Source: Akkermansia muciniphila
GTDB lineage: Bacteria > Verrucomicrobiota > Verrucomicrobiia > Limisphaerales > BJHT01
Length of the DNA: 64,000 nt
Assembly (NCBI GenBank): GCA_945861535.1
Contig: CAMAUZ010000009.1
Coordinates: forward strand, 1 to 64,000
Direction of reading: 5' to 3'
Shown here: in pieces, positions 2-61,592 of the stretch
How positions within the stretch are numbered: position 1 is the stretch's first letter
Layout: every line of letters begins with the position of its first letter
Notes under the pieces: model-generated
Told to the model about the DNA's origin: nothing
Seen by the model: the letters and a program-made list of their open reading frames with translations, nothing else
The model's database searches: none
Position numbers and translations under genes: made by a program

Positions 2-3000
2 GGCGTGGCTGCCAACGGCCCGGTGAACTCGATCGGGGCCCGCGCCGACGGGAGCTTCACCGTGGCCGGCAACTTCACCACGATGAACGGCATCCCGCGT
101 TCGCGCGTGGCGCGGCTGAACACGGATGGCTCGGTGGACCTGACGTTCAATCCGGGGCTGGGCGCGGATGCGGAGGTGCGGACCGTGGCGGCGTATGCCG
201 TGACCGTGCCGCCGCCGATTCCGGTCGCGGCGGCGGGTGGCGGCGTTGGCAGCAATACCAATGCGATAAATACCGGATCGACCGCCGGTGTCCTGACACT
301 GAACATCAATACTTTCGCCATCCTCGACAATCTGCGGGTTTATTACGAAGGCGTCCGGCTGCTCGACACCAATTTCGCGGCCGTGTTGACTTTCAATATT
401 CCTTACGGTCCGGGCACTTCGACCGTGGTGACGATCATCATGAACGAGGGCGGCGTGGGTGGCAGCGTGTGGAACTACAACGGTTCGCTCCAGCCAGCAG
501 CCGCCGGAGTCGGGTCGGATCGGGCGCTCATCGGCGGCGGGTTCACGAATTACAATGGCGAACTCAAGCGGCGCATCACGGAGTTGAACGACGGCGGGGC
601 CGCGCTCGCCGGCTTCGGTCTGGGCCGGGGCGGCGCGCAGGTGCAATCGCTGGGGATCGTCACGAACAACGCGTTGCCGGGGTTGCTCGGCAAGGTGGTG
701 GTCGGTGGCACCTACAATTTCCTCCACGGCGTGGCGACGGAGAACCTCACGCGGCTCAACGTGGATGGATCGATCGATCTCGCCTTCAACCCGGGCACGG
801 GTCCTGATGCCGGCGTCAGCGGCGTGGCGGTGCAGGCCGATGGCCGCGTGCTCGCGGTCGGTTATTTCCAGACGGTCGCGGGCATCTCGCGGAGCGGCGT
901 TGCGCGTTTGGCCACGGATGGATCGGTTGACCCGACGTTCGATCCTGGCATTGGTGCGAACAACCCGGTCTTCGCCGTGGCGCTCCAAGAGGACGGCAAG
1001 GCGGTGGTCGGCGGCTCGTTCACGATCTTTAACACCACGTTGCGCAACCTCGTGGCCCGCTTGAACACGGACGGGACGGTCGATGCCTCGTTTGATCCGG
1101 GCGTCGGTCCGAACGATCAGGTTCGTGCGGTGGCGGTGCAGGCGGACGGGAGAATTTTGGTTGCGGGTGACTTCACGCAGTTTGCCGGGCAGGCGCGCGG
1201 GCGGCTCGCGCGGCTCACGGCGACCGGCGCGCTGGATCCCAGCTTCAACACGGGCAGCGGCTTCGGCGGCGCGGTGAGCACGGTGGTGATCGATGCCGCC
1301 GGGAAAATTCTCGTCGGCGGTTCCTTCACCTCGTTCAACGGGGCGCCCGCGATGCGGATGGTGCGGCTCAATCCCGATGGCTCGCTCGACGGCTCCTTCA
1401 ACCTCGGGTCCGGCTTCGATGACGCGGTCCAATCCATCGCGGTGCAGGCGGATGGCCGGATCGTGGCGGGTGGCGACTTCACCAGCGTGGGCGGCTTCGC
1501 CCGCAGCCGGATCGCACGGCTCAACGCGGATGGCTCGATTGATCCGACAATCAACTTTGGTCTCGGGGCCGACAGCGGCGTGTCGGCGGTGCTGGTGCAG
1601 TTCTACGACGGGCGGATCGTTGCCGGCGGGGCGTTCGTGCGCTTCGATGGCGTCCTGGCCGACCGGCTCGTGCGGCTGAATGGCGGGAACAATGTCGGCT
1701 CCGGTTCGTTCGAATTTGAACCCGCGGGTTTCGCCCGCATCGAAAGCGGCGTGACGGCGCAGATCACCGTGCTGCGGCGTAACGGCCTGACCGGCGCGGC
1801 CTCCGTGCAATATCAGGATGTCGCCGGCGGGACGGCGATGGCGGGCACGAACTATCAGGCCATCAGCCCGGCCGGGACGTTGAACTTCGCCTCCGGTCAG
1901 GGCAGCGCGACCTTCAACGTGAGCCTGCTCGACGACGGGGCTTCGACCGGAAATCTCACGGCGAACCTGCGCCTGCTGAATCCGGTTGGCGCGGTGCTCG
2001 GCCTGCAGAACACGGCGACGCTGACGATTCTCGATGATGACGCGACGCTCGCGTTCAGCAACTCGGCCTACTCGATCAACGAGCGCGGCGGGCAGGCTAT
2101 CATCGATGTCGTGCGCACTGGCGGCATCAATGGCGTGGTGACGGTGGACTTCGGGACGGTGCCGGGCGGGACGGCGACGGCGGGTGTCGATTACACGAAC
2201 GTGACCGGCGTGCTGGTGTTCGGGGACGGCGAGACGCTCAAGATGTTTACCGTGCCGATCATTGATGACGCGATTGTCGAAGGGAACGAGACGGTCATGC
2301 TCGCGCTGTCGAATCCGAAAGGGCAGGGGGCCGCCACCGCGCGGCTCGGGGCGCAGGCGACGGCGACGTTGGTGATTGTCGATGATGAGTTCAGTCCGGG
2401 CGTGCTCAGTTTCGCGACCAATGCGTCGCAGGTCAGCGAGGGCGGGACGGTCACGATCACCGTCAACCGCCTCAACGGCAGCCGCGGGCTGGTGTCGGTG
2501 AGCTACCTCACCGCGGATGTTACGGCGCAGGCGGGTTTGGATTACACCGCCGCCGCTGGTTCGCTCTCGTGGGCCGATGGCGACGTGACCCCGAAGACCT
2601 TCACGATTGCGACTATTGAAGATGCGCTGGTCGAGGGACTGGAGACGTTGAACCTGGCGCTGAGCCTGCCTACGGGCGGCGCTTCGCTGGGGGCGAGCAA
2701 TGCGGTCCTGACCCTCGTGGACAACGACGGCGTCGTGCAGTTTGCCGCCGCGAATTACTCGGTGATGGAGGCCTCGACCAACGTGGTGATCACCGTCCTG
2801 CGCACGGGCGCGACGAACAATTTGGTGAGCGTGAATTTCAGCACGGTGGGCGGCTCCGCGGTGGCCGGGGTTGATTTCACGCCGACGAACGGAACGCTGA
2901 TCTTCACGCCCGGGGCCACGAGCCTGACCTTTAGCGTGACCATCCTCGACGATCAGATCGCCGAGCCGACGAAGACGGTCGGCTTTGCGTTGAGCGGTCT

Positions 3001-6000
3001 GACGGGCGCGGCGTTCTTGGGCACGCAGATCAACACCGTGCTCACGATCCTCGACAATGACATCAGCGTGCAGTTTGGCGCCGCGAGCTTCTCGGTCAGC
3101 GAAGGGACCTCCAACGCCGTCATCTCGGTCACCCGCGCGGGCAACCTCGGCGGCACCAATTCCGTGACCTTCTCGACGAGCGATGGCACGGCCACGGCCG
3201 GCGCGGATTACCTGTCGCAGGTCGGGACGGTCACCTTCCTGCCGGGCGAGACGAACAAGACCTTCACCCTCACGATCCTGCAGGACACGCTGGTCGAGGC
3301 GTCCGAGACGGTGAACCTGACGCTGAGCCTGCCCACGGGTGGCGCGGTGCTGGGCACCCCGGCGGTCGCGTCGCTCGCGATCCTGGATGACGACGCGTCG
3401 TTTGAGTTCACGGCGGCCACCTTCTCGGTGGCGGAAAACGCTGGCAGCGTGACCATCTCAGTCCGACGCAACGGCCAGACCACCGGCGCCGCGAGCGTTG
3501 ATTTTGCGGCGTTCGACGGCACGGCCACGGGCGGCGTGGATTACGCCAGCACCAACGGCATTCTCGTATTCGCCGCCGGGGTCGCCGTGCGGACCTTCGA
3601 TGTGGACATCACCGATGACGCGCTGCCGGAGGGCGACGAGACGGTGAATCTGGCGTTGAGCAATCCGGCCGGGGCCGTGCTGGGCGTGCAGCGGACGGCG
3701 GTCCTGACGATCGTCGATAACGACACCTTTGTGCAGTTCAGCAGCGCGGTGTTCAGCGTGCAGGAGGATCGCACCAACGCCGTCATCACGCTCATCCGCA
3801 GCGGGCAGACCAACGGGGTGGTCACGGTGGATTACGCGACCGCCGCCGGCACGGCGGTCGCGGGCACGGATTACGCCAACACCAGCGGGACGGCGACCTT
3901 CCCGGCGGGCGTGACCAGCGCGGTCTTCCAAGTTTCCCTCACGGACAATCTGCTCCGGCAGGCCAATCGCACGGTCAATCTGAGCCTGGCCAACGCGTCC
4001 GCGAACGCCCTGCTCGGCGCGCCCTCGACGGCGACGCTCCGCATCGTGGACAACGACCGCGTAGGCAGCGTCGATTCCCCGTTCAACGTGCGGTTTGGGG
4101 CGAACAACACGGTGTATGCCGTGGCGTTCCAACCGGACGGCAAAGTGCTCTTCGCGGGCGATTTCACCGCGGTCAACGGCACCAACATCAATCGCGTGGC
4201 GCGGCTCAATCCCGATGGTTCGCTGGATGCGACCTTCAATCCGGGCTTGGGCGCGAACAACGTGGTGTATGCGCTGGCGCTGGCGACGAACGGGCAGGTG
4301 CTGATCGGTGGCTCATTCACCGCGGTCAACGGCACGAATGCGAACTTCCTCGCCCGCCTCAATGCCGACGGTTCCCTCGATACGACCTACACCGGCGGGG
4401 CCGGGATGAACGGCGCGGTGCTGGCGATCGCGTTGCAGGTCGATGGCAAGGCGGTGGTCGGCGGCGCGTTTACGGCGGTCACGGGCGGGCTGCGCAATCA
4501 CATTGCACGACTGCTGACCAGCGGGACGATGGATGCCACCTTCAATCCGGGTCGCGGCGCGGACAACACCGTGTACGCGGTGACGCTCGACGCGACGGAG
4601 AACATCCTCATCGGCGGCCTCTTCAACACCGTCGCGCTGAACCCGCGGACGCAGGTCGCGATGCTGGCACCCAACGGCGCGCTGGACAATTTCATCGCGC
4701 CGCAGTTGAGCGCGGGCGGCCGCGTGTATGCGCTGGCGGTGCAGCCCGACGGCAACCTCCTGATCGCCGGCCAGTTCACGCAGGTGGATTCCTACGGCCG
4801 GACCAATCTGGCGCGGCTGCTGATGGCCGATGGCACGGTGGACCCGCTGTTCAATCCCACCCTCTCGCCGAGCAGCACCGTGCGGGCGCTGGCGTTGCAG
4901 GGCGCGCGGAGCATCGTGCTCGCCGGGGATTTCACGGCGGTGAACGGGCAGGCCCGCAGCGGCATCGGGCGGTTGAACGCCGACGGATCGTTGGATGCGG
5001 TGTTCGACAGCGGCATCGGTGCGGATGGCACCGTCTATGCCGCGGTGACGCGGGTGGATGGCAAGGTGCTCCTCGGCGGCGATTTCACCACGGTGGATGG
5101 CATCGCCCGGCGCGGGGTGGCGTTGCTCAACGGCAACCTCAGCCAGTTGGCCTTCACGGCGGCGACCGCTTCGGTGTTGGAAAACGCGGGCTCGGTCACG
5201 CTCACGGTCCGGCGGACGGGCGATACGAACAGCACGGTGACGGTGCCGTACCTGACGACGGACTTCACGGCGTTGGCAGGGGTGGATTACGTGACCAACA
5301 GCGGCGTGCTGATCTTTACCAACGGGCAGACCACGAACCTGATCAACGTCGGCGTCCTCAATGACCAGATCACAGAAACGGCGGAAGATTTCTTCGTGCG
5401 GCTGGGCGTTCCGGTGGGCGAAGTGATGCTCGGTGCGATCACGAATGTGACGGTGACCATTGTCGATAACGACAGCATCCTGGGTCTCGCGACTAACTCG
5501 CTGTCCGTGGCCGAGGCGGGCGGCGGCGTGGACGTGACCGTGTTCCGCCTGGGATCGACGACCGGCACGGTCAGCGTGGTGCTGGCGACCGCGGACGGAA
5601 CGGCGTTGGCGGGCAGCGATTATACGGGAATCACCAACGTGCTCACCTTTGGTCCGGGAGTCAGTTTGCTGACGAACCGGATTGCGATCCTGAACGACCG
5701 GTTGGTGGCGGCGTCCCGGCAGTTCACAGTGACGCTCGGCGCGGTCACGGGTGAGGCGCTGGCGGGTGGGATCACGAACGCGACGGTCACCATCACGGAC
5801 GACGACAGTGTGGTGCAGTTCGCGCTGGGGGCGACGAACGTGTTGGAAAATGTCGGGACGGCCGCGCTCGTGGTGACGCGCACCGGCGACTTGCGCAACA
5901 CCGTCACGCTGCCGTTTGCGACGGCGTTCGGCACGGCGCTGTCGGGCATCGACTTCATCGCGACCAACGGCACGCTGACCTTCGGCCCGGGGGAATCGAA

Positions 6001-8569: not shown

Positions 8570-8580
8570 TTTTTGCACTC

Positions 8581-21603: not shown

Positions 21604-21707
21604 CAAATGCGCGCGGCATGGCAACCCCTCGAACCCTCTCCGGCCGGTCTTTGCCCGGTGGTTCCGGGGCCGCTGCCGCGCGGGTGCGGGCGCTGAATTT
21701 TTGAAAC
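21604..21707. other. Intergenic gap between giant genes 2 and 3
   Basis: 104 bp separate the stop of gene 2 from the ATG of gene 3. No convincing promoter, Shine-Dalgarno or terminator with a T-tract is visible. The sequence just before the ATG (GAATTTTTGAAAC) is A/T-rich. Confidence 0.5.
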
Positions 21708-41015: not shown

Positions 41016-41098
41016 GTGGCGCGCGCGCGGAAAGAGCGGGTAGTGGCTTTCTTGTAGGTGACACTGTGCGAAAAAACACGATGATGGCCGGGCATAGC
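41016..41098. other. Intergenic gap between giant genes 3 and 4
   Basis: If gene 4 starts at 41099, 83 bp separate it from gene 3. The stretch is in frame with gene 4 but reads unlike the mature protein or a normal signal peptide and includes an A-tract (GCGAAAAAACACG), so I treat it as non-coding. No clear Shine-Dalgarno precedes any of the three candidate ATGs (41012, 41081, 41099). Confidence 0.45.
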
Positions 41099-50000: not shown

Positions 50001-53000
50001 GCTGGGCGCATTTGCAGGGCGGCGACCGGTTCATCCGGGTGCCGATCTTCAACAACCCGTTCGCGGACGGGGACCGGACGGTTGAAGTCGAGTTGTCCAC
50101 TGCGACCGGCGGCGCAGACATCGCGCCGCCCGGCCGGACGCTCATCACGATCACCAACGATGACCTCACCAATCCCGGTGCGCTTGGGTTCAGCCAGTTG
50201 ATCGTGGGCACTTCCGAGACCAACGGCACGGTGCTGGTCGAGGTCGTGCGGACCAACGGCTCCTTCGGGATTGTGTCGGCCAGCTTCACCACGGCGGATG
50301 CCTCGGCCCGCGCGGGGATCGATTACGTCGCCACCAGCAGCGTGCTCACGTTCACCAACGGCCAGACCACACAGACCTTCTCGGTGATGTTGCTGGACAA
50401 CGCGATCCAGGATGGCGCGCGTTTCTTCGGCGTGCGGCTCACCGGGTTCACCGGCGGGGCTACCGGCGGCCTGACCAACGCGTCGGTGCGGATCGCCGAC
50501 GACGAAGGCACGGCCGGGTCGGTCGATCTTTCGTATCTGCTGGGGAGCGGCTTCAACGGAACGGTCTATACGCTGGCGGTGACGACGAACAATCTGGCGT
50601 ATGTCGGCGGCGACTTTACCGCGTTCAACGGCTCCAATCGGGCGGGTTTGGTGCGGCTGTTGCCGGACGGTTTGCTCGATGGCGGGTTCGACCTCGGTGC
50701 GGTCGGCTTCACCGGTTCCAACGCGTCGGTGCGCTCGGTGGCGGAATATCCGCCGAACGGGTTTACCGCGAGCCAGGTGGTGTTCGGCGGGGTGTTCAAC
50801 TCGGTGGGCGGTGTCGGGCGGACCAACGTGGCCCGGGTGAATCCGAACGGTTCGGTGGACCCGAGTTTCGTGGCGGGCACGGACAACTTGGTCAACGCGG
50901 TGCTCGTGCAACCGGACGGCCGGGTGGTGCTGGGCGGCCTGTTTACGCGGGTGAACGGCAGCAGCCGGAACTTCGTCGCGCGCCTGAATTTCAATGGCTC
51001 GCTGGACGCGGACTTCTTGACCGGCACGGGACCGGACGGCGCGGTGCGCGCGCTGGCGCTGCAACCCGACGGTAAGCTGATCATCGCCGGTGAATTCACC
51101 ACTTACGCGGGCGTGCCGGCCAGCCGGATTGCACGGCTGAATCCGGACGGAACGCTCGACCCGACATTTGCGGGCGGCAGTTGGGTGGCCAGTGGTTCCG
51201 TGCAGGCGCTGCTGCGGCAGCCGGACGGACGCATCCTGGTCGGCGGCGCGTTTGTCGCGACGAACGGCGTGGCGCACACCAACTTGATGCGGCTGAACGG
51301 CGACGGCACGGTCGATGCGAGTTTCAATCCCGGCACCGGCCCCAACGAATTCGTGGGTGCGCTGGCCTTGCAACGCGACGGCCGGATCGTGGCGGGCGGT
51401 GCATTTACGATGGTCAACGGCCTGCCGGAAAACCGGATCGTCCGGTTGCAGCCGGATGGTTCGGTGGACTACAGCATCAACTTCGGCGGCGGCGCCAACG
51501 ACTATCTGGCCGCCGTGGCGGTGCAACCGGATGGCGACCTGCTCGTGGGCGGCGCGTTCACGAACTTCAACGGCGTCGCGGTCAATCACTACGCGCGGCT
51601 CACGGGCGGCCAAAATCGCGGCGCGGGATTGCTCCAGTTTGGCGCGGCTGGTTACCCGGTGGCGGAGAACGGGACCAACGCGGTGCTCACGGTGGTGCGG
51701 ACCGGCGGGTTGAGCAACGTGGTGACGGTGACGTATGCCACAACCGCCAACGGCACCGCGGCGGCGGGCGTGGATTATCAGGCCGTGTCCGGCGTGCTGA
51801 CGCTGGCCCCCGGCGTGATGACCACGAACATCCTGGTGCCGGTGATCGACAACCGCTCGGTGACCAGCAACCGGACGGTGGAGGTGGCGTTGAGCGGTGT
51901 GACCGGCGGGGCCACGCTGCCCGTGCCGACGACCACGTTGGTGACGATTCTCGAGGATGACAGCGCGATCAATTTCGTGTCGGCCAATTACAGCGTCGGC
52001 GAAAACGCGACCAACGCGGTGATCACGCTGACGCGCAGCGGCGGTCTGGTGGGCGCGGTGTCGGTAAATCTTGCAACGACGACCAACGGAACCGCGGTGG
52101 CCGGGGTGAACTACCAGCCGACCAACTTGGTGGTGAACTTCCCCGCCGGAACGAATGTGGTGACCGTGGCCGTGGGCGTGCTGGATGACGGTCTGGTGCT
52201 GGGCAACCTGACCGTCGGCCTGGTCTTGAGCAACGCGGTACCGACCAATTTCGTGGCGCTGGGCACGGTGACGAACGCGACGTTGACGATTGTGGAAAGC
52301 CGCAACGCCGCCGGCGTGCTGAACTTCGCGAGCGCGAATTTCGTGGTGGACGAAACGGTGGGCAACGCGGTGATCACCGTGGTCCGCAGCGCCGGTTCGC
52401 TGGGTTCGATTTCCGTGCAGTACGCGACGGCGGATGGTTCGGCGCTGGCGGGGTTGGACTTCACCGGGGTCGGTGGCGTGCTCTCGTTTGCCGATGGGGA
52501 AACGGCCAAGAGCTTCGTGGTGCCCGTGATTCTGGACGCACTCCTCGAACCGAACGAGTTCTTGAATTTGTCCCTCACCAACCCGGGCGGCGGCGCGCTG
52601 CTGGGGGCGACCAATCGCGCGGTGGTGACGATCGTGAACAACAACCAGTTGATCTTCGGTACGCTGGTCTTCACGGCGACGAACTACGTGGTGGGCGAGG
52701 CGGCGGGCGAAGTGATCCTGGAAGTACAGCGCATCGGCGGCCGCACCAACGGCATCGCGGTTTTCTACACGACCACCACGAACGGCACGGCGACGACCAA
52801 TGATTACGGGCCGGTGAGCGGAAACCTGCTCTGGGGCAACCTTGATGGCAGCAGCCGGTTCATCCGTGTCGCGATCACGAACAACAACCTGGCCGACGCG
52901 GATCGCACGGTGGAAGTGGTGCTGCGCAACGTGGTTGGCGGCGCGGCCATCGGCACGCCAGGCAGCACGTTCATCACCATCACCAACGATGATTTCCTGG

Positions 53001-56000
53001 CGGGCGCGCTCGGGTTTGAGCAGTTGGTGTTCGTGGTGACGGAGAACGCGACCAACGCGCTGATCACGGTGGTGCGCACCAACGGGGTGAACGGCATCGT
53101 GGGTGTGAGTTTTGCCACGGTGGACGGCACGGCTGTGAACGGCCTCGATTACCTGGCGACCAATGGATTCCTGGTGTTTACCAACGGGGCGACGAATCAG
53201 ACCTTCAGCGTGCCGGTGCTCAACAACACGCTGCAGGATGGCACGCGCTTCTTCGGTGTCCGGCTCTCCGGTTTCGTCGGTGGCGCGGTGCCGGGCCTGA
53301 CCAATTCCCTGGTGCGGATTGGCGATGACGAAGGCCCGGCCGGGTCGGTCGATGCGCTCTACGCGTTGGGCACCGGGTTTAACGGCACGGTCTATTCCCT
53401 CGCGGTCACGACCAACAGCCAGGCCTATGTGGCGGGCGATTTCACGGTCTTCAACGGCAGCAACCGCGCCGGCTTGGTGCGGCTGAATGCCGACGGCGCG
53501 CTCGACGCCGGGTTCGATGTCGGCGCGCTCGGCTTCACCGGTTCCAACGCGTCGGTGCGCTCGGTGGCGCTCGTCATCACCAACGGCTTCTTCACGGGCA
53601 AGGCTGTCTTCGGCGGACTCTTCACGTCGGTGGGCGGGGCCGCTCGGACCAACGTGGCGCGGGTGAACACCGACGGCACGCCGGATACGAGTTTCGTGGC
53701 GAACGTGAACAACCTCGTGAACGCGGTGGCGGTGCAGAATGACGGCCGCGTCGTGCTCGGCGGCCTGTTCACGCGGGTGAACGGAACCAACCGCAATTTC
53801 ATCGCGCGCCTCAATTCCGACGGTTCGCTGGACGCGGGCTTCTCCCGTGGCCTCGGCCCGAACGGCGCGGTGCGCACGCTGGTGTTGCAGCCGGATGGCC
53901 GGGCGATCATCGGTGGCGAATTCACGACCGTGGACGGATTCGCCAGCAGCCGGCTGGCGCGGCTGAACCCGGACGGCTCGTTCGACAGCACCTTCCGCGG
54001 CGGCGACTGGATCACCAATGGCGCGGTGTACACGCTGGCGTTGCAACGCGACGGGCGGCTGCTGGTCGGCGGCGCGTTCGTGGCGACCAACGGTGTGGCG
54101 CATACGAACTTGGTGCGGCTGGATGCGAACGGGGTGCTGGACGGCGGCTTCAATCCGTTCGTCGCGCGGAACGATTATGTGAGCGCGCTGGCGGTGCAGC
54201 CCGACGGGCGCGTGGTGGTCGGCGGGGCGTTCACCACGTTCAATGGTCTGCCGGAAAACCGGATCGTCCGCCTGGAAGCCACCGGCGTGGTGGATGTCAC
54301 CTGCAACTTCGGCTCCGGGGCCAACGATTACATCGCGGCGCTGGCGTTGCAGTTTGATGGCAGAATTCTGGCGGGCGGGGCGTTCACCAACTTCAACGGG
54401 ACGACGGCCAATCATTTCGTGCGCTTGCACGGCGGGGAGAATCTCGGGGCGGGCGTGCTGGCGTTCTCCGCGCCGGTGTATGCGGTGGAGGAGAGCGGAA
54501 CCAACGCCGTGATCACCGTGGTGCGCGCGGGCGGCTTGAGCGGTCAGGTGACGGTGGGCTATGCGACGACGACCAGCGGCACGGCGGTGGTGGGCGTGGA
54601 CTATCGGGCGACCAACGGCGTTCTGAGCTTCGCGACCGGCGTGACGGCGCGCAGCTTCCTGGTGCCGGTGCTCAATGATTTCGCCAACCGGGGCGACCGG
54701 ACCGTGGGGCTGGCGCTGAGCAGCGTGACCGGCGGGGCCGCGCTGGAAGTGCCGCCGACAGCGGTGCTGACGATTCTGGATGACGACAGCCTGATCAGCT
54801 TCGCGTCGGCGACTTTCAGCGTGGGCGAGGGCACGACCAACGCGTTGATCACGCTGGTGCGCAGCGGTGGTTTGGTGGGTGCGGTGTCGGTGAATTTTGC
54901 GACGACGACCAACGGCACCGCGGTGGCCGGGGTGAACTATCAGCCGACCACCCGGGTCGTGACGTTCCCCGCGGGGACCAACGAGGTGACCGTGACGGTG
55001 GGCGTGCTGGACGATGGTTTGGTGCTGGGAAATCTGACCGTCGGTTTGGCCTTGAGCAACGCGGTGCCGACCAATTTCGTCGCGCTCGGGGTTCTGACCA
55101 ACGCCACGCTGACGATCGTGGAGAGTCTCAACTCGGCGGGCGCGCTGAACTTCGCGAGCGCCAATTTCATGGTGGACGAGGCGGTGGGCGACGCGGTCAT
55201 CACGCTGGTACGCAGCGGCGGTTCGCTGGGCCTGGTCTCGGTGCAATATTCGACGGCGGATGGCTCGGCGCTGGCGGCGCTGGATTACACCAGCGCGTCG
55301 GGCGTGATCTCGTTTGCCGACGGGGAAACGGTGAAGAGTTTCCTGGTGCCCGTCATTCTCGACACGCTGGTCGAGACGAACGAATTCGCGAACCTGGTGC
55401 TCTCCAACCCGAGCGGCGGCGCGGTGCTCGGCGCGACCAACCGGTCGGTCCTGACCATCATCAACAACAACCAGTTGAGCTTTGGCAGCCTGGTCTTTTT
55501 GACCACCAACTTCGTGGTGAGCGAAGCGGCGGGCAGCGCGGTGGTCGAGGTCCGGCGCATCGGCGGCCTGACCAATGCGATAACGGTGTTCTGGGCCACG
55601 GCTTCGGGCAACACACCGACGACGAACGAAACCGCCGCCACAGCCGCCGATTACACGTCGGCCAGCGGCATCCTTTCCTGGGGCAACCTTGATGGCGCGG
55701 CCAAGTTCATCACGAACCAGGTGATCAACAACCTGCTGGTGGACGGGAACCGATCCTACGAGCTCGTGCTCGCGAACGTGACCGGCGGCGCGAGCATCGG
55801 CACGCCGGGGCGCACCTTTGTCACCATCACCAACGAGGACGCCCTGCCGGGCGCGCTCGGGTTTGCGCAGATGGTGTTCGCCGCGGTCGAGAACGGCACC
55901 AACGCCACCGTCACCGTCGTGCGGACCAATGGTTCCACGGGGACCGTGTCGGTCAGTTTCAACACCGCTGATGCCACCGCGCTGGCGGGCCGCGATTACG

Positions 56001-59000
56001 CCGCCACGAACGGCGCGCTGACCTTCACCAACGGCCAGACCACGCAGACCTTCGCGGTGCCGCTGTTCGACAATGCCGTGCTGGACGGCTCGCGTTTCTT
56101 CCAAGTGCGCCTCTCCGGCTTCACTGGCGGAGCGGTCCCGGGCCTGGCTAACGCGCTGGTGCGGATCGCCGACGACGAAGGCGCGGCCGGGTCGATTGAT
56201 TCCTCCTACACCAACGGACTCGGGCCGGACGCGATCGTGTACTCGCTCGGCCTGCAGGGGAACGGGCAGTTGATCATCGGTGGGGAGTTCAATTCCTTCG
56301 ACGGCATCACTCGCTCCCGCGTGGCGCGGGTGAATGACGACGGAACGCTGGATCAGAGCTTTGACGCGGGCGCGGTTTCGTTCGCTTCCGGCGTGGCCTC
56401 GATCCGTGCGGTCGCACCGCACACGAACGGTTTCTACGCGGGTCAGGTGGTCGTGGCTGGCTTCTTCAATTCCGTCGGCGGCCGGGCGCTCAGCCACGTC
56501 GCGCGGCTGGATGTCAACGGTGTGGTCGATGCCTCCTTCACGAACTCCCTGACCGGCCCCAACAACGGGGTGTACGCCGTCGCCGTGCAGGCCGACGGTC
56601 GCGCGGTCATCGGCGGCACCTTCACGACGGTGAACACCACCAATCGCAGCTTCGTGGCGCGCCTGACGGCTACCGGCGGGGTTGACCCCAGCTTCGATCC
56701 GCAGGTCGGTCCCGACGGCCCGGTGCGCGCGGTCGCGATTCAGAACGATGGCAAGGTCATCATCGGCGGCGATTTCTCCTCGGTGAACAGCCTGACCAAT
56801 CGCAATCACCTCGCCCGCCTCAATGCCGACGGCTCGCTCGATGCGAGCTTCGTGCCGTTTGGACTCTCGATCACCGGATCGGTGTACTCCGTAGCGATTC
56901 AGACGGACGGCAAGGTCCTCGTCGGCGGCCAGTTTCTCGCCGCCGGCGGCGCGCAGCTTCAGACCAACATGGGCGGCGTCGTGCGGCTCCATGCCGACGG
57001 CTCGCTCGACACCACCTTCTTCGCCGGCACCGGTGCGGATGATTCCGTCTCCGCCGTCGCCGTGCAGCCGGATGGCAAGGTGCTCCTCGGCGGTTCCTTT
57101 GTGAACGTGAACGGCATCGGCCGCAGCCGCCTCGCCCGCCTGAACGCGGATGGTTCGCTGGACGCGTCGTTCAACGTGGGCTTGGGCGCGAACAACCTGG
57201 TCACCTCGCTGGCCGTGCAGGGCGACGGAAAAATTCTGCTGGGCGGCGCCTTCACCCGTTTCAACGGCGCGACGAACAACTACCTCGCGCGACTGTTCGG
57301 CGGCGACAACCTCGGCAGCGGCACGCTGGCGTTTAGCGCGTCGCTCTATCAGGTCAGCGAGAGCGCCTCGAACGCGGTCCTCACCGTCACCCGCTCGGGC
57401 GGCACCTTCGGCCAGGTCACTGTGGCGCTGACGATCCCCAGCGGGGCGGCGGGCGGGACGGCGATTCCGAACATCAATTACGTCCCCCTGACCACCAACA
57501 TCCTCGTCTTCGCCGAAGGCCAGGCCACCGCCGAGTTTGCGATCCGGCTGCTCGACGATCACGTCATCCTGCCCGACCGGACCATTGTGTTGAACCTGGC
57601 CAATGCGGGCGGTGGCGCCGTCCTCGACGCGGTCACGGACACCACGGTCCTGCTCCGGGAAAAGGACTGCCTCGTGAGCTTTGGCGCCGCGGTTTACAGC
57701 GTCGCGGAGAACGTCGGCAACGCCGTCATCACTGTCGCGCGCACCGGCGGTGTGGTCGAAAACCTGACGGTCGATGTCAGCACCGGCACCAACGGCACCG
57801 CTTTCGCCGGGACCGATTTCACGGTGGTCTTGACCACGGTGACGTTCGCCAGCGGCCAGAGCAACGCCACCTTCACCGTGGCGATCACCGACGACGGCTT
57901 GATCGAGGGCAACGAGACCATTCCCCTCTCGCTGTCGATCCCTGCCGCGTTCGGCAGCTTCGCCTCCCCCGGTCAGTTCACCAACGCGGCCCTGGTCATT
58001 ATTGATAACGATGGCGGCAGCGGCACCCTCGGCTTCGCCACCAACGCGTTCTCGGTGCTCGAGACCGGCGGCTTCGCCACCGTCACGGTGGCACGCTCCC
58101 TCGGACGCTCGGGCGCGGTGTCGGTGGATTACGCCACGGTCGCGGTGCCCAACGGCGCCAGCGGCGGCGTGGTGGGCGGGCCGAATGTGGACTTCGTCAT
58201 CACGCAGGGCACGCTGGCCTTTGCGGATGGCGAAATCGTCAAGACCTTCACCGTGCCGGTCTTCGCCGATCAATTGATCGAGGGCAATGAACCGGTGAGC
58301 CTCACGCTCACGAACACCACCGGCGGCGCGGTGCTCGGGCTGGCCGCGGCGACGCTGACCATCGTGGACGACGTGGTCTTTGCCGGCCGCTTCGAGTTTA
58401 CGGCGGACACATTCCGGGTCGGTGAAGGCGAGACCAATGCCGTCATCACGGTCCGCCGCACCGGCTTGAACGCCGGCCGGGCCACGGTGTCGTTCTCGGT
58501 GACGGACATCACGGCGGTCGCGGGCCTCGATTATCTCGTCACCAACGGTTCGCTCGTGTTCCCCGACGCGGGACCGGGCAACGTCCCGACGGTGCAGACC
58601 ACGAACTTCCTGGTGCCCATCATCGACGATTCGCTGCTTGAGGTGGACGAGCAGGTCCGCGTGACCCTCTCCAACCCGAGCCTCGGTTCGGCGCTCGGAG
58701 CCTTGCCCACCGCGGTCCTCACCATCGTCGATAACGACGTGGTCATCGCCTTCAGCACCAATCGCTTCGCCGTGGACGAGGACGCGGGCGATGGCCACCT
58801 GCTTGTCGTGCGGACCGGCAACACAAACTCGGCGGTCACCTTCCAAGTCGCCACCCGGGACGGCTCCGGCACCAACGGTATCGACTACACTGGTTTCACC
58901 AACGCGTTCGCCTTCGGCCCCGGCGAAATCTTCCGTGACATCCCGGTGCCGGTCATCGGCAACACCCTCGTGAACGGCAGTCGCACCGTGAATCTGCGCC

Positions 59001-61522
59001 TGCTCAATCCGTTCCCGACCAACAGCGTGCAGTTGGGTCTCACCAACACCGCCGTCCTGAACATTCTGGACAACGACAGCGGCTTCCTGTTCTCGACCGC
59101 CAGCTTCTCCGTCGGCGAGGCCGCCGGCTCGGCGGTCATCACGGTGTTGCGCACCGGAACCAACTCGCAGGAAGTCACCGTGACCTATGCGACGGCCGAC
59201 GGCACCGCCGTGTCCCCGGCTGATTACCAGGCGACCAACGGGGTTCTGCGCTTCGCCTCGGGCGATACGGCCAAGTCCTTCAGCGTGGTCATCCGCGACG
59301 ACGCGCTGCCCGAGAGCGACGAAACCTTCTCGGTGCTGTTGAGCGACCCGACCCCCACGAACAGCGCCTTCCTCGGTGCGCTCAGCACCGCCACCGTCAC
59401 CATCCAGGACAACGACGCGCAGGTCGGCTTTGCGCTGGCCAACTACGCGGTGAGCGAGGCCGCCGGCACTGCGGGCATCTCGCTCGTGCGCCTCGGCGCC
59501 ACGAACCGCGCGGTCTCCGTGAATGTCTCCACCGGCGTCGGCACCGCCACTGCCGGCGCAGACTATGTGGCGACCAATGGCGTGGTTGTTTTCGGCCCCG
59601 GCATGCTCACCAATGTCTTCAACGTGACCGTCGTTCTCGACAATGTCGTCGAGGGTTCCGAGACCCTGCCGCTGGTCCTTTCGCTGCCCAGCGTTGGCGT
59701 CACCCTCGGGCCGATCACGACGGCGACCCTCACCATTTCCGACAACGCCGGCACCTTCGCCTTCACCGCCGCGGCCTACACCGTGCTCGAAGACGGGACC
59801 AACGCGGTGCTCACCGTCGTGCGCACCTCCGGGGCCGCCGGAACGGTTAACGTCGATTATCGAACGGTGGATGGCACCGCCATCGGGGGCTCCGATTACG
59901 TCGGGGCCGGCGGCACGCTGGTCTTCGCGCCGGGCGTCCTCGCCAGCTTCATCGTCGTCCCGATCATCGACGACCGCCTGATCGAAGCGACCGAGACCTT
60001 CACGGTCACCCTCCGCATCAGCGATCCGACCACCGGGGCGAAGCTGGGCGCGTTCAGCAATGCGACGGTCAGCATTCTCGACAACGACACGCCGTCCGGG
60101 AACGACTTCCGTTTCGATCCGACGACTTGGATCACCAACGGCTCGGTGTTCTCCGTCGTGGCGCAGCCGGATGGGAAGCTGCTCGTCGGCGGTTCCTTCC
60201 GCGTCGTGGTCACCAACGTGGTGGTGGTGGGTGGCGTTCTGGTCACGAACTACCCGGTGATGAACAATATCGCCCGCCTGAACAGCGATGGCTCGCTCGA
60301 CGCCACCTTCACCCCCGGTGCCGGACCGAATGACGCCGTGCGTTCGATGGTCCTCCAGGCCGACGGCAAGGTGCTCATTGGCGGCGACTTCACCTATGTC
60401 GCCCAGCCCGGCTACATCCGTAATCACGTCGCCCGCCTGAACGCGGATGGCTCGCTCGACACGAGCTTCACCCCGAACACCGGCGCGGGTGGCCCCGTGA
60501 TTGTTGTGGCGCGGCAACCCGACGGCAAAGTGCTCATCGGCGGCATGTTCAGCATGGTGATCACCAACGTCGTGGTGAGCAACTCGGTCGCGATCACCAA
60601 TCGCTACGCGCTGACCAACATCGCGCGGCTCAACTCGAGCGGCTCGCTCGACACGAGCTTCGGGGCCGCCAATGGGACCAACCGATTTCTCGCCGCCGCC
60701 GATCAGTCCGTGTTCGACATCGCGGTGCAGCCGGACGGGAAGATCGTCATTGCCGGCGCCTTTACCCGCTACAACGGCACCAACCGCAACTACCTCGCCC
60801 GGCTGAACGCCGACGGTTCGCTTGATCCCAACTTCAACCCCGGAACGGTGCTGGATGGGGCCGCGCTGGGCCTGGCGATTCAGCCCTTCGACGGCAAAAT
60901 CATCGTCGTGGGTGTCTTCGGGCAGTCGCTGCCGCCGTCGCCTTTCCCGATCACCAATCTCGCCGTCCGCAGCTTCGTCGCCCGCTTCCAGACCAATGGC
61001 GCGCTGGACACCGGCTTCGCGCCGTCGATTGACGGCTCGGTCCTCACGGTGGCGCTCCAGCCCAACGGCCAAATCATCGTCGCCGGCGACTTCAGCCGCG
61101 TCACCGGCGTGCCCCGGTCGCGCATCGCCCGCCTGACTCCCGATGGCCTGGTGGATCTGGCCTTCGACCCCGGGGCCGGTGCGGACGGCATCGTTTACTC
61201 GGTCACATTCGGGCTGAATGGCAAGGTGTTCCTCGGCGGCGACTTCACGCACTTCGACGGCGTTCCCCGGAACCACGTCGCCCGCTTGAACGGCACCCCG
61301 AACGTCGCCGCGCTGGCTCCCCTCAACGCCGCTCGCACCGGGCCGTTCCAACTCAACCTTCAGGGCCTGCCGCTCGGCAACTACCGGATCGAGGCTTCGA
61401 CCGACTTCGTGACCTGGACCGTGGTGGCCACGGTGACCAACAATCTCAACGGCCAGGCCACCTTCTCCGACCCCTCGTCCCCCGGCATGCGCCGCCGCTT
61501 CTACCGCGTGGTCAAGCTGTGA
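41099..61522 (+). CDS. Giant Calx-beta / delta-60 propeller surface protein 4, with 942-residue super-repeats
   Basis: About 6,807 residues from the ATG at 41099, chosen because it gives a compact signal peptide (MTLNERRFYLVWVVAAILLG..., cleavage after AQA at 26) before QTIGF. An ATG at 41012 overlapping the gene 3 stop (ATGA) and an ATG at 41081 are alternatives. Order: three Calx-beta; seven delta-60 (378-763); four Calx-beta; seven delta-60 (1246-1613); three Calx-beta; then three near-exact tandem super-modules and a diverged fourth, each beginning with two Calx-beta and seven delta-60, the first three closing with three further Calx-beta (start residues 1968, 2910, 3853, 4795); eight consecutive Calx-beta (5407-6333); seven delta-60 (to about 6735); a C-terminal module ending RRFYRVVKL. 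Total 35 Calx-beta and 49 (7x7) delta-60 repeats. Unlike genes 1-3 it has no P-domain or DUF11. Probably a secreted or surface fibre-like protein; ligand unknown. Confidence 0.95.
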   Translation: MTLNERRFYLVWVVAAILLGGVLAQAQTIGFVPGNPSVNENGTNVTLVVTRSPATGLARVSYAARDLTATAGLDYTAVSGTLTFTNGETFKTIVVPIVEDASVEAHETFEVNLFNVVGGVLARTNVAVTIYDNDTLISFTSPNYSVNESDPNAVITLARSGGNAGAASVLVATRSGTAVVGSDFVQTATTVLFTNGQTFGTFLVPLIDDCVLEGAESFTVFLTNAFGASIGAVSNATVTIIDNDSLAGTLIIRSVSRALAPEGSLVTVTIGRLCSALGAVTVDLVPLNSTNNSSSNALLGVGLDYTFASTNGTVSWATNDLTDKVIVLDLLADGLVELNEVILLGLTNATGGALINPNASTVAITIDFNDQPAGAADLIHNPITAFNPTPGANNTVRAVAVNSVVGDPNFGTAVIAGDFTAVNGVVRNRLARLDVTGFLDPTFAPLDGADGSVASVVIQPDGRILVAGGFAAINGLPRNGVARLLDTGLPDVSFDPGLGLNGTVAAMALQPDGRVVVVGDFTTAGGEVRRQVARFNTNGSVDLTFDARLGSDGSLLAVAIVPGAGGAPSRILVGGAFSSFNGVAANGIVRLNTDGSVDGTFAPVAGIDGIVFAIAVQANGASLLGGSFNAFDGASRRSIVRVNPNGTLDATFDPGAAVEGSVFDIAIQANGGILIAGQFSAFDGVVRNNLARLNADGTLDTSFLDSYYNQTQQGPNGLVLSVALQPDTNVVVGGSFDTVGGGPSASDVLQRQNVARLLGGNPPPPLNRPGNVEFVAASFSVNENAAGGVVIVTARRTGGNLLPLVVDYATSDRTAVAGVDYQAVTGTLSWNDQESLATNKTFAIPILNNALVDGNRTFEVILANPRSGTQPPTTQPAPGFQRRAVVTIIDDDFTVGVFGFAGPVFEVSEAVGNATITIERANGSTGVASVQYATVPGTATTGVDYLSRSGTLTFISGQTKGTFTVPIINDVAPEFEESIQLTLSNPTGGATLGLANAVLLIMDNDSGPGSFGSLSFTTNNFSVSETNRSASIVVRRTSGGVGQVEVDVQSGDFLPVAPGRARANLDYTPVTRHLIFPAGSTNSQTVSIPILADRLVEGTEVFTVWLTNVTGGARLGYLSNATVAIVDANTYGQLTFSAASYFISENGGTSSIRIDRVGGDAEQVAVEYLIVPGTAISNVDFVAASGTLIFEDGQTSTNLLIPIIDNLLVEPNRTLSLILSNFNKATPGRFTNATLTLFDDESLAAPAGAVNTGFDTTVGANAPINALLLAAGGKLVIAGQFTGYGGTAINRIARLNPDGRLDVEFQPGTGANGEITALALQADQKLVAGGRFTAFNGANRSYLARLNAEGSLDSTFNIGSGPDNPVFAVAVRNDGRLAVGGSFTTFNGIGRANFLVLTTNGVVDPSFNVGAGVNGQVFAVAVQPDGRVLIGGDFTLVNNTNRARLARFNANGTLDLSFDPGTNGANATVRVITVQPDGKVLVGGSFTNISGTNWNHLARLNADGTPDRFFNPGTGANEDVLALALLPAPDNRILVGGSFTNFNTLGRHYLTRLTTNGAVDSTMNFGLGANAPVFALALQADQQLNAAGAFTQFDGVPRNRLVRLLGGDNFGPGEFEFSAADFTVSENATNATLVVRRVGGSQGAATLTFATANGTATNGVDYTATSGPLVFRDAELFRTIQVPVTNNLTSDGDRTFTVTLGSTGGAVLGRPTVATVTILDDDTILNFSSPTFSVIENVPGARAFITVERLGGSAGSVSVQYLTSTGGTAIPYPGAGPVGNANYTNAAGVLTWANGETGGKTFAIGIIDDLLTNANRTINLALFGATNGTARTPITLTGQTNATLTLVDNEFGRGLVGFSQPTFDVSESIAVATITVIRTNGSAGVVTVDFSTSDGSALAGVNYVATSGTLSFADSEQAKTFPLTILSDGLSTTNLSFSVTVSNPTGGAGLGFQDSAVVLILNDDQLVFGGLVFSATNYVVSEAVGEAILEVQRLGGTSNAVAVFYTTTTNGTATTNDYGPASGNLFWADRDGSSRFIRVPVTDNNFADADRTVEVVLLNAVGGASIGTPGSTFITITNDDFLAGTLGFGEVVFNVTENATNAVITVTRTNGTLGIVGASFATLDVTAVAGRDYVATNGFLVFTNGATNATFSVPLINNALQDGPRFLAVQLFGLAGGAQPGLTGALVRIGDDEGAAGSVDASYLLGSGFNGTVYALAVTTNNLAYVGGDFTTFNGTNRPPLVRLNADGTFDAGFNVGAIIRPGTNAAVRAVALAGSNGVADGRVVFGGVFTSVGGVARTNVARLNANGTLDTNFVANVNNLVNAAAVQNDGRVVLGGQFTVVNGLTRNFVARLNLDGTLDAGFATGLGPNGAVRALVLQPDGKTIIGGEFTAVNGVSASRLARLNADGSLDGSFSGGRWLTNGAVYALALQRDGRLLVGGAFVATNGVVHTNLVRLTAGGVIEDGYNPFVERNDYVSALALQGNGRAVVGGAFTTFNGLSENRIVRLTTNGTVDVSINFGAGADDYVAALAVQPDGRLLAGGAFTNFNGTTANHFVRLFGGENLGSGVLAFATPVFLVAESGTNAVITVLRSGGLANPVTASFTTTNNGTAVAGVDYVATNGVLNFAPGVAAASFLVPVLNDSTIRGDRTVGLALTGVTGGAAFEVPPAAVLAILEDDSLISFASATYSVGESTTNALITLVRSGGAVGPATVTFATTTNGTAVAGVNYVPTSQVVLFPPGTNSVTVAVGVLDDGLIVGNLTVGLTLTNAGPTNFVALGEVTNATLTMVESLNAAGVLNFASTNFVVDEAVGSAVITVVRSGGSLGLVTVQYATGDGTALAGLDYGSVTGVVSFADGEMAKSFLVPVILDQVVETNEFLNLTLFNPNGGAVLGAAGRAVLTIVNNNLLVFGNLAFSATNYVVSEAVGEAVLTVRRLGGTTNAVSVFYTTTTNGTAAATDFAATNGLLSWAHLQGGDRFIRVPIFNNPFADGDRTVEVELSTATGGADIAPPGRTLITITNDDLTNPGALGFSQLIVGTSETNGTVLVEVVRTNGSFGIVSASFTTADASARAGIDYVATSSVLTFTNGQTTQTFSVMLLDNAIQDGARFFGVRLTGFTGGATGGLTNASVRIADDEGTAGSVDLSYLLGSGFNGTVYTLAVTTNNLAYVGGDFTAFNGSNRAGLVRLLPDGLLDGGFDLGAVGFTGSNASVRSVAEYPPNGFTASQVVFGGVFNSVGGVGRTNVARVNPNGSVDPSFVAGTDNLVNAVLVQPDGRVVLGGLFTRVNGSSRNFVARLNFNGSLDADFLTGTGPDGAVRALALQPDGKLIIAGEFTTYAGVPASRIARLNPDGTLDPTFAGGSWVASGSVQALLRQPDGRILVGGAFVATNGVAHTNLMRLNGDGTVDASFNPGTGPNEFVGALALQRDGRIVAGGAFTMVNGLPENRIVRLQPDGSVDYSINFGGGANDYLAAVAVQPDGDLLVGGAFTNFNGVAVNHYARLTGGQNRGAGLLQFGAAGYPVAENGTNAVLTVVRTGGLSNVVTVTYATTANGTAAAGVDYQAVSGVLTLAPGVMTTNILVPVIDNRSVTSNRTVEVALSGVTGGATLPVPTTTLVTILEDDSAINFVSANYSVGENATNAVITLTRSGGLVGAVSVNLATTTNGTAVAGVNYQPTNLVVNFPAGTNVVTVAVGVLDDGLVLGNLTVGLVLSNAVPTNFVALGTVTNATLTIVESRNAAGVLNFASANFVVDETVGNAVITVVRSAGSLGSISVQYATADGSALAGLDFTGVGGVLSFADGETAKSFVVPVILDALLEPNEFLNLSLTNPGGGALLGATNRAVVTIVNNNQLIFGTLVFTATNYVVGEAAGEVILEVQRIGGRTNGIAVFYTTTTNGTATTNDYGPVSGNLLWGNLDGSSRFIRVAITNNNLADADRTVEVVLRNVVGGAAIGTPGSTFITITNDDFLAGALGFEQLVFVVTENATNALITVVRTNGVNGIVGVSFATVDGTAVNGLDYLATNGFLVFTNGATNQTFSVPVLNNTLQDGTRFFGVRLSGFVGGAVPGLTNSLVRIGDDEGPAGSVDALYALGTGFNGTVYSLAVTTNSQAYVAGDFTVFNGSNRAGLVRLNADGALDAGFDVGALGFTGSNASVRSVALVITNGFFTGKAVFGGLFTSVGGAARTNVARVNTDGTPDTSFVANVNNLVNAVAVQNDGRVVLGGLFTRVNGTNRNFIARLNSDGSLDAGFSRGLGPNGAVRTLVLQPDGRAIIGGEFTTVDGFASSRLARLNPDGSFDSTFRGGDWITNGAVYTLALQRDGRLLVGGAFVATNGVAHTNLVRLDANGVLDGGFNPFVARNDYVSALAVQPDGRVVVGGAFTTFNGLPENRIVRLEATGVVDVTCNFGSGANDYIAALALQFDGRILAGGAFTNFNGTTANHFVRLHGGENLGAGVLAFSAPVYAVEESGTNAVITVVRAGGLSGQVTVGYATTTSGTAVVGVDYRATNGVLSFATGVTARSFLVPVLNDFANRGDRTVGLALSSVTGGAALEVPPTAVLTILDDDSLISFASATFSVGEGTTNALITLVRSGGLVGAVSVNFATTTNGTAVAGVNYQPTTRVVTFPAGTNEVTVTVGVLDDGLVLGNLTVGLALSNAVPTNFVALGVLTNATLTIVESLNSAGALNFASANFMVDEAVGDAVITLVRSGGSLGLVSVQYSTADGSALAALDYTSASGVISFADGETVKSFLVPVILDTLVETNEFANLVLSNPSGGAVLGATNRSVLTIINNNQLSFGSLVFLTTNFVVSEAAGSAVVEVRRIGGLTNAITVFWATASGNTPTTNETAATAADYTSASGILSWGNLDGAAKFITNQVINNLLVDGNRSYELVLANVTGGASIGTPGRTFVTITNEDALPGALGFAQMVFAAVENGTNATVTVVRTNGSTGTVSVSFNTADATALAGRDYAATNGALTFTNGQTTQTFAVPLFDNAVLDGSRFFQVRLSGFTGGAVPGLANALVRIADDEGAAGSIDSSYTNGLGPDAIVYSLGLQGNGQLIIGGEFNSFDGITRSRVARVNDDGTLDQSFDAGAVSFASGVASIRAVAPHTNGFYAGQVVVAGFFNSVGGRALSHVARLDVNGVVDASFTNSLTGPNNGVYAVAVQADGRAVIGGTFTTVNTTNRSFVARLTATGGVDPSFDPQVGPDGPVRAVAIQNDGKVIIGGDFSSVNSLTNRNHLARLNADGSLDASFVPFGLSITGSVYSVAIQTDGKVLVGGQFLAAGGAQLQTNMGGVVRLHADGSLDTTFFAGTGADDSVSAVAVQPDGKVLLGGSFVNVNGIGRSRLARLNADGSLDASFNVGLGANNLVTSLAVQGDGKILLGGAFTRFNGATNNYLARLFGGDNLGSGTLAFSASLYQVSESASNAVLTVTRSGGTFGQVTVALTIPSGAAGGTAIPNINYVPLTTNILVFAEGQATAEFAIRLLDDHVILPDRTIVLNLANAGGGAVLDAVTDTTVLLREKDCLVSFGAAVYSVAENVGNAVITVARTGGVVENLTVDVSTGTNGTAFAGTDFTVVLTTVTFASGQSNATFTVAITDDGLIEGNETIPLSLSIPAAFGSFASPGQFTNAALVIIDNDGGSGTLGFATNAFSVLETGGFATVTVARSLGRSGAVSVDYATVAVPNGASGGVVGGPNVDFVITQGTLAFADGEIVKTFTVPVFADQLIEGNEPVSLTLTNTTGGAVLGLAAATLTIVDDVVFAGRFEFTADTFRVGEGETNAVITVRRTGLNAGRATVSFSVTDITAVAGLDYLVTNGSLVFPDAGPGNVPTVQTTNFLVPIIDDSLLEVDEQVRVTLSNPSLGSALGALPTAVLTIVDNDVVIAFSTNRFAVDEDAGDGHLLVVRTGNTNSAVTFQVATRDGSGTNGIDYTGFTNAFAFGPGEIFRDIPVPVIGNTLVNGSRTVNLRLLNPFPTNSVQLGLTNTAVLNILDNDSGFLFSTASFSVGEAAGSAVITVLRTGTNSQEVTVTYATADGTAVSPADYQATNGVLRFASGDTAKSFSVVIRDDALPESDETFSVLLSDPTPTNSAFLGALSTATVTIQDNDAQVGFALANYAVSEAAGTAGISLVRLGATNRAVSVNVSTGVGTATAGADYVATNGVVVFGPGMLTNVFNVTVVLDNVVEGSETLPLVLSLPSVGVTLGPITTATLTISDNAGTFAFTAAAYTVLEDGTNAVLTVVRTSGAAGTVNVDYRTVDGTAIGGSDYVGAGGTLVFAPGVLASFIVVPIIDDRLIEATETFTVTLRISDPTTGAKLGAFSNATVSILDNDTPSGNDFRFDPTTWITNGSVFSVVAQPDGKLLVGGSFRVVVTNVVVVGGVLVTNYPVMNNIARLNSDGSLDATFTPGAGPNDAVRSMVLQADGKVLIGGDFTYVAQPGYIRNHVARLNADGSLDTSFTPNTGAGGPVIVVARQPDGKVLIGGMFSMVITNVVVSNSVAITNRYALTNIARLNSSGSLDTSFGAANGTNRFLAAADQSVFDIAVQPDGKIVIAGAFTRYNGTNRNYLARLNADGSLDPNFNPGTVLDGAALGLAIQPFDGKIIVVGVFGQSLPPSPFPITNLAVRSFVARFQTNGALDTGFAPSIDGSVLTVALQPNGQIIVAGDFSRVTGVPRSRIARLTPDGLVDLAFDPGAGADGIVYSVTFGLNGKVFLGGDFTHFDGVPRNHVARLNGTPNVAALAPLNAARTGPFQLNLQGLPLGNYRIEASTDFVTWTVVATVTNNLNGQATFSDPSSPGMRRRFYRVVKL
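47000..57315 (+). repeat. Tandem super-repeat array, 2,826-2,829 bp units, inside gene 4
   Basis: Units begin at the phenylalanine of equivalent FG.L.F segments at 47000, 49826, 52655 and 55481, so the periods are 2,826, 2,829 and 2,826 bp (942, 943, 942 residues). Each of the first three units is two Calx-beta, one seven-repeat propeller, then three Calx-beta. The fourth is more diverged and continues into a different Calx-beta run after its propeller, about 57315. Units 1 and 2 are visibly close at the DNA level, for example around the first blades at 47740 and 50566. Confidence 0.9.
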
Positions 61523-61549
61523 GCCGTGCGCTGCGCGGCGGTGTTTTCC

Positions 61550-61582
61550 GGCGCGCGGGCGGTCCCCGCCCGCAGCCGCGCC
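61550..61582 (+). terminator. GC-rich hairpin after gene 4 (possible terminator)
   Basis: About 28 bp after the gene 4 stop, GCGGGCGG (61555-61562) and CCGCCCGC (61566-61573) form a perfect 8-bp stem with a 3-nt loop; GGCGCG and CGCGCC outside it can extend the stem. No T-tract follows, so this is not a classical intrinsic terminator. Position supports a 3'-end role. Confidence 0.4.
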
Positions 61583-61592
61583 AAACTCGCGA

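What the first reader, a model, noticed from the sequence alone, without database searches (positions are those of the whole stretch)
2..61300. Delta-60 repeats occur only in blocks of exactly 7 or 14
Counting each blade by its V.A.A.QPDG+...GG.F core, all complete blocks give 7 repeats (gene 1 second block; gene 2 three blocks; gene 3 blocks 1, 2 and 5; gene 4 seven blocks) or 14 (gene 3 blocks 3 and 4). Genes 3 and 4 each total 49. Sixteen complete blocks without exception argue that the unit is a seven-bladed beta-propeller. DUF5122 is described as a beta-propeller family; the strict seven-fold count across a whole locus is the observation here.
Basis: partly seen in the sequence, partly recalled or inferred. 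Interest (0 to 1): 0.8.

Follow-up and report, generated by a model that had tools for sequence, protein, structure and literature searches.

The report
Seven-bladed propellers in giant bacterial proteins
Four giant, probably exported bacterial proteins carry a repeated protein module in blocks of exactly 7 or 14 because seven copies close into one ring-shaped "propeller" and fourteen make two rings in tandem; the rule holds in most relatives checked and matches how better-known propeller proteins are built.

Summary
The count is right. A 51-position repeat profile finds 16 complete blocks, 14 of 7 blades and two of 14, plus a gene-1 block cut off by the contig start (2+7 visible blades; the sister genome's intact copy has 14). 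That makes 19 complete seven-blade units.

A single block folds in AlphaFold2 with pLDDT 94 and pTM 0.92, and matches seven-bladed WD40 rings end to end (RACK1, Z 30.7). A 14-block best matches 2YMU, a crystal structure of two tandem seven-bladed rings. Blocks start with an orphan outer strand and end without one, as in outer "velcro" closure.

The rule generalises. In a count-blind survey of Verrucomicrobiota loci, 54 of 55 well-scored blocks hold 7 or 14 blades, and a few long arrays hold 27-28. One block in a distant plasmid has six.

Two corrections. The 16 blocks are not independent: 67 of 130 blades are closest to the same position in another ring. The "49" per gene is incidental; the sister's gene 1 totals 42. 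Pfam already calls DUF5122 a propeller, and 7/14 peaks are published for WD40. Well supported, mostly expected.

The parts
2..8569 (+). Gene 1, 5' end cut off by the contig start (2855 aa visible): truncated propeller block, Calx-beta domains, one 7-blade block, Calx-beta, P-domain-like and DUF11 domains
2..619 (+). Gene 1 block 1, last two blades of a first ring; the second blade carries the beta-sandwich insert (about 200-511)
   Evidence: intact in sister genome G001:C52
584..1699 (+). Gene 1 block 1, second ring, 7 blades (start overlaps the shared outer strand of the previous blade)
4055..5152 (+). Gene 1 block 2, 7 blades
8566..21603 (+). Gene 2 (4345 aa as read), three 7-blade blocks, Calx-beta, P-domain and DUF11 domains
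10336..11913 (+). Gene 2 block 1, 7 blades; blade 5 carries an insert at about 11056-11469
13477..14571 (+). Gene 2 block 2, 7 blades; the block that was folded
16339..17469 (+). Gene 2 block 3, 7 blades
21708..41015 (+). Gene 3 (6435 aa), blocks of 7, 7, 14, 14, 7 with Calx-beta, DUF11 and P-domain regions
22833..23963 (+). Gene 3 block 1, 7 blades
25431..26525 (+). Gene 3 block 2, 7 blades
27915..30578 (+). Gene 3 block 3, 14 blades (two rings, several weak blades); insert in blade 7 at about 29046-29393
32280..34784 (+). Gene 3 block 4, 14 blades; insert in blade 7 at about 33291-33596; the 14-block that was folded (32268-34805)
35799..36902 (+). Gene 3 block 5, 7 blades
41012..61522 (+). 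Gene 4 (6836 aa as read), seven 7-blade blocks separated by Calx-beta domains
42227..43372 (+). Gene 4 block 1, 7 blades
44831..45934 (+). Gene 4 block 2, 7 blades
47678..48796 (+). Gene 4 block 3, 7 blades; close duplicate of blocks 4 and 5
50507..51625 (+). Gene 4 block 4, 7 blades
53333..54451 (+). Gene 4 block 5, 7 blades
56180..57319 (+). Gene 4 block 6, 7 blades
60089..61312 (+). Gene 4 block 7, 7 blades, some with long loops

Best explanation
Each run of seven delta-60/DUF5122 repeats is one closed, WD40-like seven-bladed beta-propeller. One 51-residue repeat gives the three inner strands of a blade (A, B, C) and the short outer strand D. Every block opens with an orphan D strand and its last blade ends after strand C, so the ring closes when the first D pairs with the last C (outer velcro closure). 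Fourteen repeats are two such rings in tandem without a linker, as in Aip1, 2YMU and Utp21. Blocks are multiples of seven because other numbers would leave a ring that cannot close well, and because whole rings were often copied as units. In these proteins the rings act as rigid discs strung between Calx-beta domains. The most likely role of the whole is a very long exported or surface scaffold that binds other molecules. Shown here: the counts, the strand frame, the ring-level relatedness. Predicted: the ring fold. Inferred: selection against other counts, export and function.
For: Counts. Single block: pLDDT 94.4, pTM 0.92, VIA-align Z 30.7 to RACK1 and 30.6 to v13WRAP-T over residues 4-365. 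14-block: pLDDT 84.3, pTM 0.65; best match 2YMU, Z 31.9, 564 aligned; one half (20-480) matches the non-velcro seven-bladed nvWRAP-T, and velcro-closed rings match residues 8/9 to 835. Strand frame: N-terminal D score median 9.6 bits, after the last blade 0.3, background -1.1. Same topology described for Utp21, Aip1 and 2YMU (PMC3897721). Generality: 108 of 157 blocks unfiltered, 54 of 55 at the strictest score filter, are multiples of seven. Freshly amplified ring L119 (71% identity between its blades) also has seven.
Against: No experimental structure of a DUF5122 protein was found; the only sequence hits in the PDB are designed proteins and chance-level matches. The two models are AlphaFold2 predictions without templates, and no coordinates or error matrix could be inspected; ring closure is inferred from alignment ranges. 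The N-terminal strand of the 14-block has low confidence (pLDDT 55-67). Methylobacterium L134 block 1 has six clear blades. Many non-multiples in the raw counts were resolved by eye, and only the exceptions were re-read.
Confidence: 0.92

Rival explanations
1. Inheritance only: an ancestral seven-repeat cassette was copied many times, and the constant count reflects common descent rather than a structural need for seven.
For: In the window 67 of 130 blades have their nearest relative at the same position of another ring (about 18 expected), and gene 4 blocks 3-5 are 69-78% identical.
Against: Between genomes position-matched similarity is barely above rotated (best rotation 0 in 19-23% against 14% by chance), neighbouring rings of one array show no clear positional match (4 of 21), and the freshly amplified ring L119 has seven. 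Proteins with only about 22-40% identity between blades still keep the count. The high-confidence ring prediction gives an independent structural reason. It is a partial cause inside this window.
Confidence: 0.06
2. Open beta-solenoid or superhelix: repeats stack linearly and seven is incidental.
For: Regular short-period beta repeats can form solenoids; strand D is only a single bridge residue in the DSSP of both models.
Against: Single-block model aligns end to end with closed seven-bladed WD40 rings at rmsd about 2.1-2.4; block ends show the velcro strand frame.
Confidence: 0.02
3. 14-repeat blocks are single 14-bladed rings rather than two seven-bladed rings.
For: The two halves follow each other without a linker.
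Against: The 14-block model matches 2YMU and single seven-bladed rings; published overviews give twelve blades as the largest known propeller (PMC9218822).
Confidence: 0.02
4. Counting artefact: the number depends on where weak repeats are accepted.
For: Unfiltered automated counts give 49 of 157 blocks that are not multiples of seven, mostly diverged or interrupted ones.
Against: The fraction of multiples rises as blade quality rises: 66/76, 59/66, 55/60, 54/55; reversed sequences give no blades.
Confidence: 0.03

Closest known systems
DUF5122 (PF17164) / delta-60 repeat domain (TIGR02608)
   Same: The repeats score far above both families' cut-offs; Pfam already describes DUF5122 as a beta-propeller.
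   Different: The 36-position Pfam model covers only part of the 51-residue blade. No statement of a strict multiple-of-seven count was found in the papers searched; one modelling paper proposed 2YMU as template (PMC8078820).
WD40 seven-bladed propellers (RACK1, PRL1, WRAP-T)
   Same: Predicted fold, seven blades, outer velcro closure.
   Different: Only 12-20% identity in the alignments; the blade consensus has no WD or GH dipeptide; PF00400 matches only weakly.
Tandem two-ring WD40 proteins: 2YMU (WRAP of Nostoc), Aip1, Utp21
   Same: 14 repeats without linker forming two seven-bladed rings, with the first outer strand closing the last blade (PMC3897721; model match).
   Different: Here several single and double rings alternate with Calx-beta domains in one giant protein, and some blades carry a beta-sandwich insert.
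Recently amplified beta-propellers (Pereira and Lupas 2022)
   Same: Blade number peaks at 7 and 14 in WD40-like arrays (PMC9218822).
   Different: There a continuum of intermediate numbers is reported; here well-scored blocks are almost all multiples of seven.

Membership tests
DUF5122 / delta-60 repeat family (PF17164, TIGR02608) | Profile match above the curated cut-off | tested here: met
   PF17164 454-801 bits against cut-off 27; TIGR02608 297-321 bits against 76.5 (genes 1 and 2)
Seven-bladed beta-propeller fold | Seven four-stranded blades in a closed ring | tested here: met
   By prediction only: pLDDT 94.4, pTM 0.92, end-to-end match to seven-bladed rings
Seven-bladed beta-propeller fold | Outer velcro closure: first strand D pairs with last strand C | tested here: met
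   Sequence frame in 14 of 16 testable blocks above background 95th percentile, and match to v13WRAP-T
WD40 repeat family | WD and GH dipeptides in the repeat | tested here: not met
   Consensus [51 protein letters not shown] has neither
WD40 repeat family | Pfam PF00400 match | tested here: inconclusive
   Whole-protein scores 24-42 bits, mostly around the cut-off 27, no single stretch significant
Tandem double propeller of the Aip1/2YMU type | Two seven-bladed rings from 14 repeats | tested here: met
   By prediction only: best match 2YMU, Z 31.9, 564 residues
Tandem double propeller of the Aip1/2YMU type | N-terminal strand D closes the second ring, not the first | tested here: inconclusive
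   Alignment ranges point that way (20-480 non-velcro; 8/9-835 velcro) but that strand has pLDDT 55-67 and coordinates could not be inspected

The most novel reading that the evidence does not exclude
Blade number in this family is held to multiples of seven by selection on ring closure across independent amplifications, and uninterrupted arrays of 28 blades (five orthologous proteins of the class, loci L113, L115-L118) fold as four tandem rings closed by a single N-terminal strand, an arrangement larger than the single, double and triple ones described for WD40 domains.
Probability: 0.35. Interest if true: 0.55.

Novelty: new member of a known kind. Interest (0 to 1): 0.4.

Why it matters
It turns an annotation ('DUF5122 beta-propeller') into a testable structural rule: one block equals a whole number of seven-bladed rings. 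That gives correct domain boundaries for giant proteins (cut before the first orphan strand D, after the last strand C), lets gene truncations and frameshifts be spotted from the blade count, and offers natural series of 7-, 14- and 28-blade arrays to study how propellers grow. The WD40 literature shows that isolated blades can form rings of six to nine, so a family that keeps to seven so closely is a useful contrast.

Tried and rejected
The first looping-profile settings were far too permissive and found blades in Calx-beta domains and in reversed sequences; stricter settings were kept. The apparent 21-blade array in G003:C135 was rejected as one array: it is 14 + a short Calx-beta remnant + 7. 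Counts of 29 in L113, L116 and others were double counts of one long blade. The loop inserts have no Pfam match; Foldseek suggests a beta-sandwich (4DZG, 3AFG among the 14-block hits) but this was not followed. The genome's own DUF5122 hits all lie on this contig, but only 150 of 258 candidates were scored, so 'only locus' is not proven. Literature searches for 'DUF5122', 'PF17164' and 'delta-60 repeat' found a single relevant paper.

Full report
What is there. The window is the first 64 kb of contig C9 of a 7.9 Mb assembly. It holds four co-directional giant genes, 1 to 4, on the + strand (2-8569, 8566-21603, 21708-41015, 41012-61522), followed by a ClpB-like gene on the other strand. Genes 1/2 and 3/4 overlap by four bases. 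All four proteins mix DUF5122/delta-60 repeats with Calx-beta domains; genes 1 to 3 also have DUF11 and P-domain regions. Genes 2, 3 and 4 begin with stretches that look like export signals by eye; this was not tested. A same-genus genome (G001) matches Lake Biwa-type record BJHT01000052, a Verrucomicrobiota bacterium, so the window is from that phylum.

The count. A 51-column profile built from the window's repeats finds 135 blades in 17 blocks: 14 complete blocks of 7, two of 14 (gene 3 blocks 3 and 4), and the truncated gene-1 block with 2 + 7. The truncated block is complete in the sister genome, with 14 blades.

The strand frame. Block starts carry an orphan outer strand D (for example GSVDPTFN) and the last blade stops after strand C (RLNGG). 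Scored with the profile, the N-terminal D has a median of 9.6 bits, the place after the last blade 0.3, Calx-beta background -1.1 with a 95th percentile of 4.7; 14 of 16 testable blocks exceed that percentile. This is the outer velcro frame of WD40 rings.

Structure. The single block at 13477-14571 was folded on an alignment of 16 window rings: pLDDT 94.4, pTM 0.92. VIA-align puts seven-bladed WD40 rings on top, aligned from end to end (RACK1 of Leishmania Z 30.7, rmsd 2.1, 281 residues; PRL1 30.7; v13WRAP-T 30.6). Plain Foldseek also ranks designed eight- and nine-bladed Cake proteins first by E-value, with lower TM-scores than PRL1 or Doa1, so the blade number rests on the VIA alignment and on the sequence count together. 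The 14-block at 32268-34805 gave pLDDT 84.3 and pTM 0.65. Its best match is 2YMU, two tandem seven-bladed rings (Z 31.9, 564 of 577 residues). The non-velcro ring nvWRAP-T matches residues 20-480, and velcro-closed rings match residues 8/9 to 835. That pattern is what the Utp21 paper describes for tandem WD domains: the first strand D of the chain closes the last blade (PMC3897721). The strand in question has low confidence in the model, so this detail is tentative.

Does the rule hold elsewhere? DUF5122 occurs in 16 of 20 relatives within the order and 18 of 145 genomes across the phylum. I fetched loci and counted with a looping-profile Viterbi fixed on the window and its reversal, blind to the count. 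Of 157 blocks, 108 are multiples of seven: 87 of 7, 16 of 14, 2 of 21, 3 of 28. Filtering by blade quality, without regard to number, raises the share: 66/76, 59/66, 55/60, 54/55. This set includes the window and its sister. Reading the exceptions by eye resolved most of them to 7 or 14 once diverged or interrupted blades were counted. That reading was one-sided, because only exceptions were re-read, so the filtered count is the evidence to quote. One '21' is 14 + 7 with a remnant between. Five orthologous proteins carry uninterrupted arrays of 27-28.

Other phyla, from plasmid records, read less formally: Hymenobacter 7+7 in two proteins, Azotobacter 7, Streptomyces 7, Deinococcus 7, Methylobacterium 7 and 7 but also one block of six clear blades. 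The six-blade block is a candidate true exception.

Why seven? Two causes can be separated. Within the window, copying of whole rings is clear: 67 of 130 blades have their nearest relative at the same position of another ring against about 18 expected, and gene 4 blocks 3 to 5 are 69-78% identical. The sixteen blocks are therefore not independent. Across genomes the positional signal nearly vanishes, neighbouring rings in one array show none to speak of, and ring L119, with 71% identity among its own blades, looks freshly amplified and still has seven. Closure of the ring is the simplest reason for both. One fresh amplification is thin evidence for selection, so that step remains inference.

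Function. Not shown. Export signals, calcium-binding-type Calx-beta domains and rigid rings suggest a long surface or secreted scaffold. Rival uses (enzyme, nutrient capture) are not excluded.

Against the literature. Pfam names DUF5122 a beta-propeller; one modelling paper used 2YMU as its template (PMC8078820). Pereira and Lupas report peaks at 7 and 14 with a continuum between for WD40-like arrays (PMC9218822). Afanasieva and colleagues show that WD40 fragments form rings of six to nine blades (PMC6805158). What is added here is the strictness in this family, the strand frame that explains the linker-free 14-blocks, and the 28-blade arrays. It is a sound, mostly expected result.

Noticed in passing
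L113, L115, L116, L117, L118 (class-level relatives): Orthologous proteins of about 2000 aa with one uninterrupted array of 27-28 blades and a single N-terminal outer strand; would be four tandem rings.
   Followed up: partly
L119 (from residue 2377 of its ORF) and L125: Rings whose blades are unusually alike (71% within L119), a sign of recent amplification from one blade; both have seven.
   Followed up: partly
window about 200-511, 11056-11469, 29046-29393, 33291-33596: Inserts of about 100-140 aa in the loop between strands A and B of one blade, probably a beta-sandwich, without Pfam match.
   Followed up: partly
L048, ORF of 1192 aa: Six blades, then about 300 aa of other sequence, then eight blades; consistent with a domain inserted into one blade of a 14-blade array.
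   Followed up: partly
L134, ORF at 4824: Methylobacterium currus plasmid protein whose first block has six clear blades; candidate true exception.
   Followed up: partly
window 43343-61720, - strand: A 6125-codon open reading frame antisense to gene 4, most likely a by-product of high G+C and repeated codons.
   Followed up: no
window 8566-8569 and 41012-41015: Four-base overlaps of genes 1/2 and 3/4, suggesting one transcription unit of four giant genes.
   Followed up: no
L036-L039 (Actinomycetota): More distant relatives in which three or four blades score and the rest are diverged; by eye seven blades seem present.
   Followed up: no
L055, L059, L066, L052: Blocks broken at contig ends or by apparent frameshifts; the blade count exposes them as incomplete.
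   Followed up: partly
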